From the NCBI RefSeq assembly GCF_900188485.1, contig NZ_FZPH01000004.1, forward strand, positions 473,552 through 537,551: 64,000 bases of DNA, given 5' to 3'. Below are positions 54,952 to 59,720 of the stretch, piece after piece; position 1 is the stretch's first letter, and each line of letters opens with the position of its first letter. A program made the position numbers and the translations under genes. Origin of the DNA: Asanoa hainanensis (GTDB taxonomy: Bacteria > Actinomycetota > Actinomycetes > Mycobacteriales > Micromonosporaceae). The notes beneath the pieces are model-generated. The model worked only from the letters and a program-made list of their open reading frames with translations. It ran no database searches and was not told the origin of the DNA.

Positions 54952-55584
54952 GTGTCAGCCACCGCCGCACTCCTGTTCGCCGATCTCCTCGGTGTCGCTG
55001 TTTTCGCCGCATCCGGCGCATCCGCCGCAGTAGTCAAGCGACTGGACCTGTTCGGTGTGTGCTTTGTCGGGTTCGTAGCCGCTCTCGGTGGCGGCATCGT
55101 CCGTGACCTCGTAGTCGACCAGGCCCCACCCCTGGCCTTCGACGACTGGCGCTACGCGGTTGTGGCAGCTCTCACAGCGGTCGCGGTCTTCTTCTTCCAC
55201 CCTCAACTGGCCCGGCTCCGCCGCGTCGTGGTCGTCCTCGACGCGGCCGGGCTGGCCCTGTTCACCGTCACGGGCACCCTGGTCGCGTTGCGCGCCGGGG
55301 TGCCGCCGGTCGGTGCGTGCCTCCTCGGCATGATCGCGGCCATCGGCGGCGGCGTCGCCCGGGACCTGCTGCTGGGCGAGATCCCGATCGTGCTGCGCCG
55401 CGAGATCTACGCGGTAGCGGCCTTGGCGGGCGCGGTCCTGGTGATGGCCCTGTACCGAGCGGACCAGACCGGCTGGCCCATGGTCGGCGCGGGTGTCCTG
55501 GTCTTCGCGATCCGCCTGGTAGCCCTACGCCGCAACTGGAACGCGACCCCAACCCCAGACGACCGCCCCAAACTCCCGGCCTAA
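54952..55584 (+). CDS. TRIC-family (UPF0126) cation channel-like membrane protein
   Basis: A 210-residue membrane protein with two repeats of three transmembrane segments. Each repeat has the GGGIVRDLV / GGGVARDLLLGEIP motif, with the conserved Gly-rich kink and Arg-Asp. Bacterial and animal TRIC channels share this layout and pass K+ or other monovalent cations. GTG 54952 starts 14 bp after DUF3039. The intergenic region behind it holds the tandem palindrome array. Confidence 0.9.
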   Translation: MSATAALLFADLLGVAVFAASGASAAVVKRLDLFGVCFVGFVAALGGGIVRDLVVDQAPPLAFDDWRYAVVAALTAVAVFFFHPQLARLRRVVVVLDAAGLALFTVTGTLVALRAGVPPVGACLLGMIAAIGGGVARDLLLGEIPIVLRREIYAVAALAGAVLVMALYRADQTGWPMVGAGVLVFAIRLVALRRNWNATPTPDDRPKLPA

Positions 55585-55606
55585 CCCGCCCCCACACCGA
55601 CACCCC

Positions 55607-55753
55607 GTTAGTAAGCGCTCACTAACCCAGGGGTGGTGAGCGCTTACCAACCGCCCGGGTGGAGCGCTCGCTAACCGCGCGGGTGGTGAGCGCTTGCTAA
55701 CGCCCCGGGTAGTGCGTGCTCACTAACCGCCTGGGTGGTGAGCGCTTACTAAC
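55607..55753. repeat. six-copy, 25-26-bp phased near-palindrome array
   Basis: Six 20-bp elements with consensus GGTGGTGAGCGCTTACTAAC share an AGCGCT centre (copy 5 has CGTGCT). Their centres begin at 55614, 55639, 55663, 55689, 55715 and 55741, so the spacing is 25, 24, 26, 26 and 26 bp. Copy 1, GTTAGTAAGCGCTCACTAAC, is nearly a perfect palindrome. The linker between units is CCGCCCGG-like. The shape suits a TetR-type dimer site in tandem, or iterons. No matching regulator is nearby. Confidence 0.9.
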
Positions 55754-55840
55754 CGCCTGGGGCTCCCGGAGGAGCCAACCCATCGGCGCGGCGGAGGAGC
55801 GCGTTGCGGCCCAACGGTCTTGATCGTTGCCGCAGCCATC

Positions 55841-55949
55841 GCGGACCTGGCAGCGGAGCGAAGCGGAGCGGTCTCTCGCGGGAGGAACGGTCCGGACCAC
55901 GGCGGACCCGAGTACGCCAAGCCTTGATCGGTCTGGCCTTGATCGGTCT
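55841..55949. repeat. intergenic block duplicated at 59598-59706 (copy 1)
   Basis: Positions 55841-55949 align to 59598-59706 over 109 bp with three mismatches (at 55901, 55931 and 55935) and no gaps. The block includes one unit of the 50-61-bp repeat and the beginning of the 15-bp repeat. Neither side resembles a transposase gene or has obvious terminal inverted repeats. Confidence 0.9.
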
Positions 55950-55995
55950 GGCCTTGATCGGTCTCGCTTTGATCGGTCTCGCCTTGATCGGGCTT
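55921..55995. repeat. five tandem 15-bp repeats (GCCTTGATCGGTCTG)
   Basis: The units begin at 55921, 55936, 55951, 55966 and 55981. The first two are identical and the others differ by one to three bases. The same motif occurs twice at 59678-59707 next to the second block copy. Each unit carries TTGATCGG, so every 15 bp a GATC site repeats. Confidence 0.9.
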
Positions 55996-56124
55996 GAGCT
56001 GAGCGGCAGGACAATCATCACCCTTGTGTCTGCTGGGGATCACGGTGCGCGCGTGGTTATGCTGAGGATCGCCTTCGCCTCGCGGCGGGGGCGTTTTTCG
56101 TGACACGAGGGGGCGACAAGGTTG

Positions 56125-57870
56125 GTGGCGAAGCCGTCGCTCGAGGCGTTTCCGCCGTTGCGGTCGTGGCAGCGCAAGGCGATGGTCGGCTACCTGCGGC
56201 GCCCGGCCGAGGATTACATGGCGGTCGCTACGCCCGGTGCAGGCAAGACCACCTTCGCCCTGCGGCTCGCGGCCGAGCTCCTCGTCGCCGGGACTGTCGA
56301 CGCCGTCACCGTGGTCGCGCCCACCGAGCACCTCAAGACGCAGTGGGCGCAGGCGGCGGCTCGGGTCGGCATCCAGCTCGACGCCGCGTTCCGTAACGCC
56401 GACCTGCACTCGTCGGCCGACTTCCATGGCGCGGTCGTGACCTACGCCCAGGTCGGCATGGCGCCCCAGGTGCATCGCCGGCGCACGATGACCCGGCGCA
56501 CGTTCGTCATCCTCGACGAGATCCACCACGCGGGCGACTCGCGGACCTGGGGTGACGGGGTCAAGGCCGCCTTCGAGAACGCGACCCGGCGGTTGATGCT
56601 GACCGGTACGCCGTTCCGGTCGGACGACAACCCGATCCCCTTCGTGACGTACGAGCGCGGCGGCGACGGGCTCCAGCGGTCCAGGGCCGACTCGGTCTAC
56701 GGCTACGCCGACGCGCTGCGCGACGGCGTCGTCCGGCCCGTGATCTTCCTGGCGTACTCCGGTGAGACCCGCTGGCGCACCAGCGCCGGCGACGAGCTCG
56801 CCGCCCGGCTCGGTGAGCCGATGACCCAGGACCTCGTCGCCCAGGCCTGGCGTACGGCGCTCGACCCCACCGGTGACTGGATGGTCCAGGTGCTGCGGGC
56901 CGCCGACGCGCGGCTACAGGTCAAGCGGGCCGGCGGGATGCCCGACGCCGGCGGCCTGGTGATCGCTACCGACCAGCAGAACGCGCGCTCGTACGCGAAG
57001 CTGATCGAGCGCGTGACCGGCGAGAAGGCCGTCGTGGTGCTCTCCGACGACGCCGGAGCCTCCGACCGGATCGCGGCGTTCGCGGCATCCGACCAACGCT
57101 GGATGGTCGCGGTCCGGATGGTGTCCGAGGGTGTCGACATTCCACGGCTTTCGGTCGGCGTGTACGCGACCAGCGCCTCGACCCCGTTGTACTTCGCCCA
57201 GGCGATCGGCCGGTTCGTCCGGGCCCGCCGCCCCGGCGAGACGGCCAGCGTGTTCCTGCCCAGCGTGCCGCACCTGCTCGGGCTGGCCAGCGAGATGGAG
57301 GCCGAGCGCAACCACGTACTCGGCGCGCCCAAGGAGGACGACGGTCTCGACGACGCGCTGTTGGAACGGGCGCAGCAGACCGAGGACGCCAGCGGCGAGC
57401 TGACGAAGCGGCACGAGATGCTCTCGGCCACGGCCGAGCTCGACCAGGTGATCTTCGATGGCGCCTCGTTCGGCACGGGGGCGCTGGCCGGCACGCCCGA
57501 GGAGGAGGAGTACCTGGGCCTGCCCGGGCTGCTCACGGCCGACCAGGTGGCCACGCTGCTCAACAAGCGTCAGGCGGACCAACTCGCGGCCCAGAAGCGG
57601 CGGTCGACCAGCAACGCTTCGGCGGATGGGTCGGGTGGGGCGCGGGTGGCGGGGATGACCGCGGCGCCTCCGGGGCCGGTCTCGGCCGGCGAGCGAAGGG
57701 TCGTCCTGCGCCGTCAGCTCAACGCTCTGGTAGCCGCGCACCATCACCGCACCGGACAACCCCACGGCAAGATCCACGCGGAACTGAGGCGAATCTGCGG
57801 GGGTCCGCCGAGCGCCCAGGCGACGATCGAGCAGCTCGAGGAGCGGATCGCCACCTGCCAGACCCTTTGA
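56125..57870 (+). CDS. stand-alone DEAD/DEAH superfamily 2 helicase
   Basis: A 581-residue SF2 ATPase. The Q-like WQRKAM precedes Walker A ATPGAGKTTF (~35-44). VVAPTEHLKTQWA is motif Ia, DEIH (131-134) is motif II, LTGTPFRSD motif III, and the C-terminal RecA domain has VSEGVDIPRLSVGVYATSA (motif V) and FAQAIGRFVRARRPGE (motif VI). The last ~150 residues form a helical, Gln/Glu-rich tail. There is no nuclease, methylase or Z1/HKD domain, so this is not an obvious restriction enzyme. GTG 56125 is chosen (TTG 56122 is the alternative) behind AGGGGG. Its substrate is unknown. Confidence 0.88.
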   Translation: MAKPSLEAFPPLRSWQRKAMVGYLRRPAEDYMAVATPGAGKTTFALRLAAELLVAGTVDAVTVVAPTEHLKTQWAQAAARVGIQLDAAFRNADLHSSADFHGAVVTYAQVGMAPQVHRRRTMTRRTFVILDEIHHAGDSRTWGDGVKAAFENATRRLMLTGTPFRSDDNPIPFVTYERGGDGLQRSRADSVYGYADALRDGVVRPVIFLAYSGETRWRTSAGDELAARLGEPMTQDLVAQAWRTALDPTGDWMVQVLRAADARLQVKRAGGMPDAGGLVIATDQQNARSYAKLIERVTGEKAVVVLSDDAGASDRIAAFAASDQRWMVAVRMVSEGVDIPRLSVGVYATSASTPLYFAQAIGRFVRARRPGETASVFLPSVPHLLGLASEMEAERNHVLGAPKEDDGLDDALLERAQQTEDASGELTKRHEMLSATAELDQVIFDGASFGTGALAGTPEEEEYLGLPGLLTADQVATLLNKRQADQLAAQKRRSTSNASADGSGGARVAGMTAAPPGPVSAGERRVVLRRQLNALVAAHHHRTGQPHGKIHAELRRICGGPPSAQATIEQLEERIATCQTL

Positions 57871-59435: not shown

Positions 59436-59706
59436 CCACCGCGGACCTGGCAGCGAAGCGCAGCGTTCCTCTCGCGAGAGGAACGGTCCAGACCACCGCG
59501 CACCTGGCAGCGGCACGGTCTCGCAGAAGGAACTGGTCCGGACCACCGCGGACCTCCCAGCGGCACGGTCTCGCAGAAGGAACTGGTCCGGACCACCGCG
59601 GACCTGGCAGCGGAGCGAAGCGGAGCGGTCTCTCGCGGGAGGAACGGTCCGGACCACCGCGGACCCGAGTACGCCAAGCCTTGATCGTTCTCGCCTTGAT
59701 CGGTCT
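59436..59706. repeat. tandem 50-61-bp repeat array with duplicated block (copy 2)
   Basis: Units starting CCACCGCG begin at 59436, 59493, 59543, 59593 and 59654 (spacing 57, 50, 50, 61 bp). Units 2 and 3 are 50 bp long with three mismatches. Unit 1 contains the perfect 20-bp palindrome GTTCCTCTCGCGAGAGGAAC (59465-59484), degenerate in the other units. The stretch 59598-59706 is the second copy of the 109-bp block at 55841-55949, and two 15-bp repeats (59678-59707) follow. The array ends 14 bp from the stop of the methyltransferase gene. Confidence 0.88.
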
Positions 59707-59720
59707 CAATTTGATCTGCC

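What the first reader, a model, noticed from the sequence alone, without database searches (positions are those of the whole stretch)
55607..55753. Six phased copies of a TetR-like 20-bp palindrome with no regulator nearby
GGTGGTGAGCGCTTACTAAC and variants recur six times with 24-26-bp spacing, about 2.5 helical turns, so neighbouring sites face opposite sides of the helix. Arrays of one operator with regular phase are rare outside iterons of replication origins and clustered operators. No TetR-type gene is in the window, and the array lies between a channel gene and a helicase gene. It could be a titration or looping site, a nucleoid-structuring element, or an origin-like iteron.
Basis: partly seen in the sequence, partly recalled or inferred. 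Interest (0 to 1): 0.72.

Follow-up and report, generated by a model that had tools for sequence, protein, structure and literature searches.

The report
Dispersed arrays of a repressor's operator
In a soil actinobacterium the short DNA docking site of one TetR-type repressor, which in most relatives is found only beside the repressor's own gene, has been copied, often in arrays, to ten other places in the genome, and a similar spread has happened in a related genus.

Summary
The six-copy array is real. The same palindrome occurs at eleven places in this 8.64-Mb genome: eight gaps between genes, two sites inside genes, and one promoter. A reversed-pattern control gave none. At that promoter, on another contig, two copies 26 bp apart lie between divergent tetR and NmrA-like genes. 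The pair recurs there in all six Asanoa genomes held. Outside Asanoa, 76 of 78 tetR orthologues have a site within 200 bp upstream, against 12 of 2124 control windows. So the palindrome is very probably this TetR's operator; binding has not been shown. Four sister species carry only the promoter pair; this species has 27 sites and A. ishikariensis 28. Only the TRIC-helicase array is shared between these two. A Paractinoplanes-group genome has its own amplification. Array variants stay within the bases the operator tolerates (0 of 2000 shuffles) and show no consistent RNA-pairing covariation. In one kinase gene 9 of 20 bases changed into the site against 1 of 58 in the flanks, without an indel. 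I favour a repressor sponge spread by copying and tandem duplication; neutral spread is the main rival.

The parts
55607..55753 (.). array of six operator-like palindromes, spacing 24-26 bp
55607..55626 (.). copy 1, GTTAGTAAGCGCTCACTAAC, best match to the consensus
55632..55651 (.). copy 2, GGTGGTGAGCGCTTACCAAC
55656..55675 (.). copy 3, degenerate
55682..55701 (.). copy 4, GGTGGTGAGCGCTTGCTAAC
55708..55727 (.). copy 5, GGTAGTGCGTGCTCACTAAC
55734..55753 (.). copy 6, GGTGGTGAGCGCTTACTAAC
55555..56014 (.). stretch of about 460 bp holding the array and a second repeated element; an insertion is present here also in A. ishikariensis (G001) and absent in G002-G005
54952..55584 (+). upstream gene, PF03458 (TRIC/UPF0126-type membrane protein)
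56122..57870 (+). downstream gene, ResIII/DEAD helicase

Best explanation
The array is a cluster of operators for one TetR-family autoregulator whose gene lies elsewhere (G000:C13:20217-20789), divergent to an NmrA-like NAD(P)H-binding gene. In two of six Asanoa genomes the operator has been copied from its promoter to other places, in Asanoa mostly 3' ends of genes, and multiplied there by tandem duplication. The copies still look like binding sites, so the repressor probably occupies them. The simplest consequence is titration: 25 (strict pattern) to 40 (profile) extra sites act as a sponge that sets the free repressor level and so the expression of the tetR/NmrA-like pair. Shown by sequence: the site's place at orthologous promoters, dispersal, turnover, variation within what the operator tolerates. 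Inferred: binding, the sponge effect, and how the site was copied.
For: Promoter footprint: all 6 Asanoa; 76 of 78 other loci against 12 of 2124 control windows. One close tetR per Asanoa genome. Dispersal: 18 forward and 20 reverse places, control 0; 27 and 28 sites in G000 and G001, 2 each in G002-G005. Empty sites in relatives. Array variants score 18.8 on a matrix from non-Asanoa promoters against 14.4 (sd 0.6) for shuffled mutations, 0 of 2000 as high. Adjacent units differ at 33 of 344 invariant-core positions and 61 of 174 spacer positions. A separate amplification in G089, which has its own orthologue and promoter pair. Engineered arrays of tet operators do titrate a TetR (PMC7686491, passages).
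Against: No binding or expression data. Array units are related by duplication, so the tests overstate independence; for units two apart the contrast nearly vanishes (28 of 232 against 17 of 114). Four of six Asanoa species do without the arrays. G094 and G072 have arrays of a related palindrome without a close tetR orthologue.
Confidence: 0.5

Rival explanations
1. Neutral palindromic repeat: the operator sequence spreads by copying and slippage, as REP elements do, and repressor binding there is incidental.
For: Species-specific positions and fast turnover; tandem 26- and 52-bp units; sites inside genes that replace codons; other tandem repeats fill the same kind of gap in a sister species (L230).
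Against: Variants stay within operator tolerance; in G089 arrays L252 and L254 operators are 83 and 92% alike while similar-length spacers are near shuffled level; the same operator was amplified in two genera.
Confidence: 0.3
2. Roadblock or insulator: repressor-bound arrays at gene ends stop transcription from running into the neighbour.
For: By my gene calls the 12 distinct intergenic Asanoa loci other than the tetR promoter are 6 convergent, 4 co-directional, 2 unclear, 0 divergent.
Against: In G089 two arrays sit inside genes (L251, L256) and two in divergent gaps (L252, L255).
Confidence: 0.1
3. Chromosome-organising sites: the TetR marks a chromosome region as SlmA or RefZ do.
For: Half-site GTGAG as in the SlmA consensus GTGAGTACTCAC, which occurs 50 times in E. 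coli K-12 and not in Ter (PMC3116907, passages); G094/G072 sites contain exactly that 12-mer; arrays with two or more sites stay within 2.96 Mb (Asanoa) and 2.57 Mb (G089) of dnaA, p 0.0099 and 0.0088.
Against: SlmA model 44.5 bits against a cut-off of 120; with the family profile SlmA matches only over the DNA-binding part, 3-90, below many other TetRs; with single sites included the G089 dnaA test fails (p 0.65); four Asanoa species lack the sites.
Confidence: 0.06
4. RNA element: transcribed palindromes act as tandem hairpins (termination or stability).
For: The array RNA folds far better than shuffles, -108 kcal/mol, z -8.4.
Against: Any palindrome array folds. Over 55 variants, pairs 2-19 and 4-17 are paired less often than shuffled (16 against 25.3, 34 against 40.2); only pair 8-13 leans the other way (47 against 44.2, 31 of 500 shuffles as high). 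No T-run terminator at the array.
Confidence: 0.04

Closest known systems
TetR-family autoregulatory operator
   Same: Near-palindromic site in the promoter between the regulator and a divergent gene, conserved in orthologues.
   Different: Here it also occurs in arrays far from any promoter.
REP/BIME palindromic repeats (PMC3733652, abstract and outline)
   Same: Short palindromes, clustered, downstream of genes in convergent and co-directional gaps, some inside genes.
   Different: No GTAG or CGTC tag seen; the sequence is the operator of a known gene pair; RAYT transposase not searched for.
SlmA binding sites (PMC3116907, passages)
   Same: TetR-family protein, GTGAG...CTCAC palindrome, dispersed sites.
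   Different: Sites in arrays, only in some species; protein not an SlmA by curated cut-off.
Synthetic DNA sponges of tet operators (PMC7686491, passages)
   Same: Tandem operators of a TetR, made to titrate it.
   Different: Engineered on plasmids; here natural, chromosomal, many loci, effect unproven.

Membership tests
Operator of this TetR/NmrA-like pair | Lies in the regulator's own promoter and is kept in orthologues | tested here: met
   6 of 6 Asanoa; 76 of 78 others. For the motif, not for the window copies.
Operator of this TetR/NmrA-like pair | Array copies vary only as the promoter operator does | tested here: met
   0 of 2000 shuffles; units not independent
Operator of this TetR/NmrA-like pair | Bound by the TetR | not testable with these tools
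   needs EMSA, DAP-seq or ChIP-seq
REP elements | Short extragenic palindromes, repeated, at gene ends | tested here: met
REP elements | Unpaired GTAG or CGTC tag | tested here: not met
   no such constant tag in the listed units
REP elements | RAYT transposase in the genome | not tested
SlmA nucleoid occlusion factor | Curated family cut-off | tested here: not met
   44.5 against 120 bits
SlmA nucleoid occlusion factor | Sites absent around the terminus | tested here: inconclusive
   p 0.0099 and 0.0088 for arrays, 0.65 with single sites in G089
SlmA nucleoid occlusion factor | Acts on FtsZ | not testable with these tools
   needs experiment
Replication-origin iterons | One cluster beside the initiator gene | tested here: not met
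   many clusters; dnaA on contig C30

The most novel reading that the evidence does not exclude
A mobile operator: a repressor's own 20-bp site is copied, without indels, into gaps between genes and even into protein-coding DNA, in more than one lineage and more often near the repressor gene than chance, so that a local one-component regulator acquires a genome-wide set of bound arrays within the life of a genus.
Probability: 0.25. Interest if true: 0.85.

Novelty: new variant of a known kind. Interest (0 to 1): 0.62.

Why it matters
Binding sites are usually thought to arise by point mutation at promoters. Here closely related genomes with and without the arrays, and a coding gene in which one 20-base stretch was swapped, allow tests of whether operators can spread as units, by what repair process, and whether natural operator sponges are selected. 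It would also give a natural counterpart to engineered operator sponges.

Tried and rejected
Origin or iterons: rejected. Known RNA family: no match in the window at Rfam gathering scores. Artefact of one strain: rejected (G001 and G089). RNA hairpin as the conserved feature: no consistent covariation. SlmA membership: cut-off not met. TetR in the window: none found with the family profile. Loci L075, L076 and L077, from weak BLAST tails, held no site and were dropped. The smc site in G001 differs from G004 at 3 of 20 bases, codes for the smc motif GGERSLT and may be chance. L072 and the in-gene sites were left out of the Asanoa position test; L072 had no match in the closed genome G003. No regulator was found for the G094/G072 palindrome. 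At pdxS, where G001 has an array, the G000 contig ends, so G000 cannot be judged. Short-patch illegitimate recombination (recalled, Acinetobacter) as a copying mechanism: the full phrase had no hit; three papers were listed for the abbreviation; the one opened does not hold it in its main text, so nothing was read about it. Literature on this element: Asanoa with palindrom, 2 papers, unrelated by title; Micromonosporaceae with palindromic repeats and intergenic, 0; nothing wider was searched for prior reports. RefZ papers: search listing only.

Full report
What is there. Six copies of a near-palindrome lie at 55607-55753, 24-26 bp apart, one of them degenerate. In the window the 18-base pattern hits only this array. 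No TetR gene was found in the window.

Whole genome. The window is G000:C22:473552-537551. BLAST of the array and a pattern scan of its own genome find the unit at eleven places: C22 (window array, 6), C22 near 316 kb (15 by profile, 19 with weak copies), C13 near 198.7 kb (7-8), C13 near 20 kb (2, the tetR promoter), C15 (2), C18 (1), C35 (2), C29 (2), C24 (4), and single sites inside genes on C20 and C43. The scan gave 18 forward and 20 reverse places; the reversed control gave none. The profile scan lists 43 sites, including the promoter pair and one isolated weak hit in the window. Neighbouring units are mostly 26 bp apart, apart from breaks within arrays. Gene limits are my own GC-frame calls.

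Source. The C13 pair lies between a TetR gene and a divergent NmrA-like NAD(P)H-binding gene. All six genomes of the genus held have such a pair there, 26-27 bp apart. The genome-contig scan found 276 relatives and kept the best 80. Of these, 79 have a matching palindrome near the tetR start, searched from 400 bp upstream; one of them, L135, is weak. Leaving out the two Asanoa loci, 76 of 78 have one within 200 bp upstream and 39 have two, most often 27 bp apart; the control is 12 of 2124 windows of 200 bp. This is footprinting of an operator, not a binding experiment.

Spread. At up to 3 mismatches G000 has 27 sites, G001 28, G002 to G005 2 each; 12 of 61 genomes had any; the control pattern gave 0 or 1 per genome. 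Among 354 family genomes 59 have a match to a looser pattern, and five have five or more forward matches: G000 21, G001 17, G089 39, G094 8, G072 5. Among 296 genomes drawn from the class, 62 match; none but G000 has five forward matches, and G641 has 4 forward and 5 reverse. G089 belongs to genus g29; that this is the Paractinoplanes group is inferred, because the sites of G067 (g29) have the contig position of L148, Paractinoplanes aksuensis. G089 has one tetR orthologue, 54% identical, with two sites 29 bp apart upstream. G094 and G072 carry a related palindrome with core GTGAGTACTCAC and only distant TetR matches.

Turnover. Of the arrays, only the TRIC-helicase one is found in both G000 and G001; the tetR promoter pair and a site inside a hydrolase gene are also shared. 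At pdxS G000 cannot be judged. In G002 to G005 the roughly 460-bp stretch with the array is missing. At the PAP2/GNAT locus G000 has about 725 bp where G001 has about ten. Several arrays consist of identical 26-bp or alternating 52-bp units, so they grow by tandem duplication.

Constraint. Mutations in 55 distinct array variants score far better on a matrix from non-Asanoa promoters than shuffled mutations, 0 of 2000 as high, and so do the 110 per-array events. Adjacent units differ at 33 of 344 invariant-core positions against 61 of 174 spacer positions; for units two apart the figures are 28 of 232 and 17 of 114. In six G089 arrays operators are more alike than similar-length spacers in five and equal in L255 (0.80 against 0.79). 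Units are related, so these tests overstate independence. RNA pairing is not kept by covariation, although the array folds strongly.

Sites in coding genes. In a histidine-kinase gene G000 differs from G001 at 9 of 20 bases in the site and 1 of 58 in the flanks, with no indel; G001 against G002 gives 2 of 20 and 5 of 58; the other five Asanoa lack the site. A membrane-protein gene in G001 shows 7 of 20 against 8 of 58 compared with G000. The hydrolase site is identical in G000 and G001 (0 of 20, flanks 7 of 58) and differs from G003 (9 of 20, flanks 13 of 58). The smc case is 3 of 20 against 2 of 58. In G089 in-frame copies spell VSERLPT-like peptides in a sugar kinase, a nickel-transport protein and a GH31 glycosidase. 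One copying event explains the kinase case better than nine point mutations, but that is inference.

Position. Mapped on the closed genome G003, 11 Asanoa arrays (two of them neighbours, one placed by an offset) lie on average 1.41 Mb from tetR, p 0.014; G089 gives p 0.009 for 8 multi-site loci and 0.0035 with four single sites. For dnaA the mean distance gives p 0.052, 0.033 and 0.10, and the greatest distance 0.0099, 0.0088 and 0.65. Twelve p-values were computed, none corrected.

Context. The 12 distinct intergenic Asanoa loci other than the promoter are 6 convergent, 4 co-directional and 2 unclear. In G089 two arrays are inside genes and two in divergent gaps, so the 3'-end preference is not general.

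Verdict. Shown: place at orthologous promoters, dispersal, turnover, tolerated variation. Inferred: binding, the sponge effect and the copying mechanism. Neutral spread is a serious rival; roadblock, nucleoid and RNA roles are less likely.

Noticed in passing
window 55754-56015 and 59470-59707: A second repeated element follows the array: 15-bp repeats GCCTTGATCGGTCTC (55921-55991; again at 59678-59707) and related 50-bp repeats at 59470-59613; a diverged form of the element after the array is in G001, absent in G002-G005.
   Followed up: partly
window about 56012-56095: A block beginning CACCCTTGTGTCTGCTGGGGATCAC just upstream of the helicase is conserved in six Asanoa genomes; in the window it ends in a terminator-like hairpin with a T-run at 56070-56093. 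Possibly a leader or small RNA; no Rfam match.
   Followed up: no
L265, L266, L271, L274 (G072, G094): Arrays of GTTTGTGAGTACTCACTCAC and variants, core equal to the published SlmA consensus, in genomes without a close orthologue of this TetR; regulator unknown.
   Followed up: partly
L230 (G003): The diacylglycerol-kinase/GCS2 gap of a sister species is filled with its own, different tandem repeats.
   Followed up: no
L224 (G000:C4 end): The G000 contig ends in the gap upstream of pdxS where G001 carries an array; a repeat may have broken the assembly.
   Followed up: no
L100:6607-6678 (G001): A further three-copy array about 3 kb from the TRIC-helicase array in G001, between a sugar-kinase-like gene and an epimerase-like gene; the window has no site in that gap.
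   Followed up: yes
L254:2590-2795 (G089): A hexamer run (CCAGCT)n lies between two operator copies.
   Followed up: no
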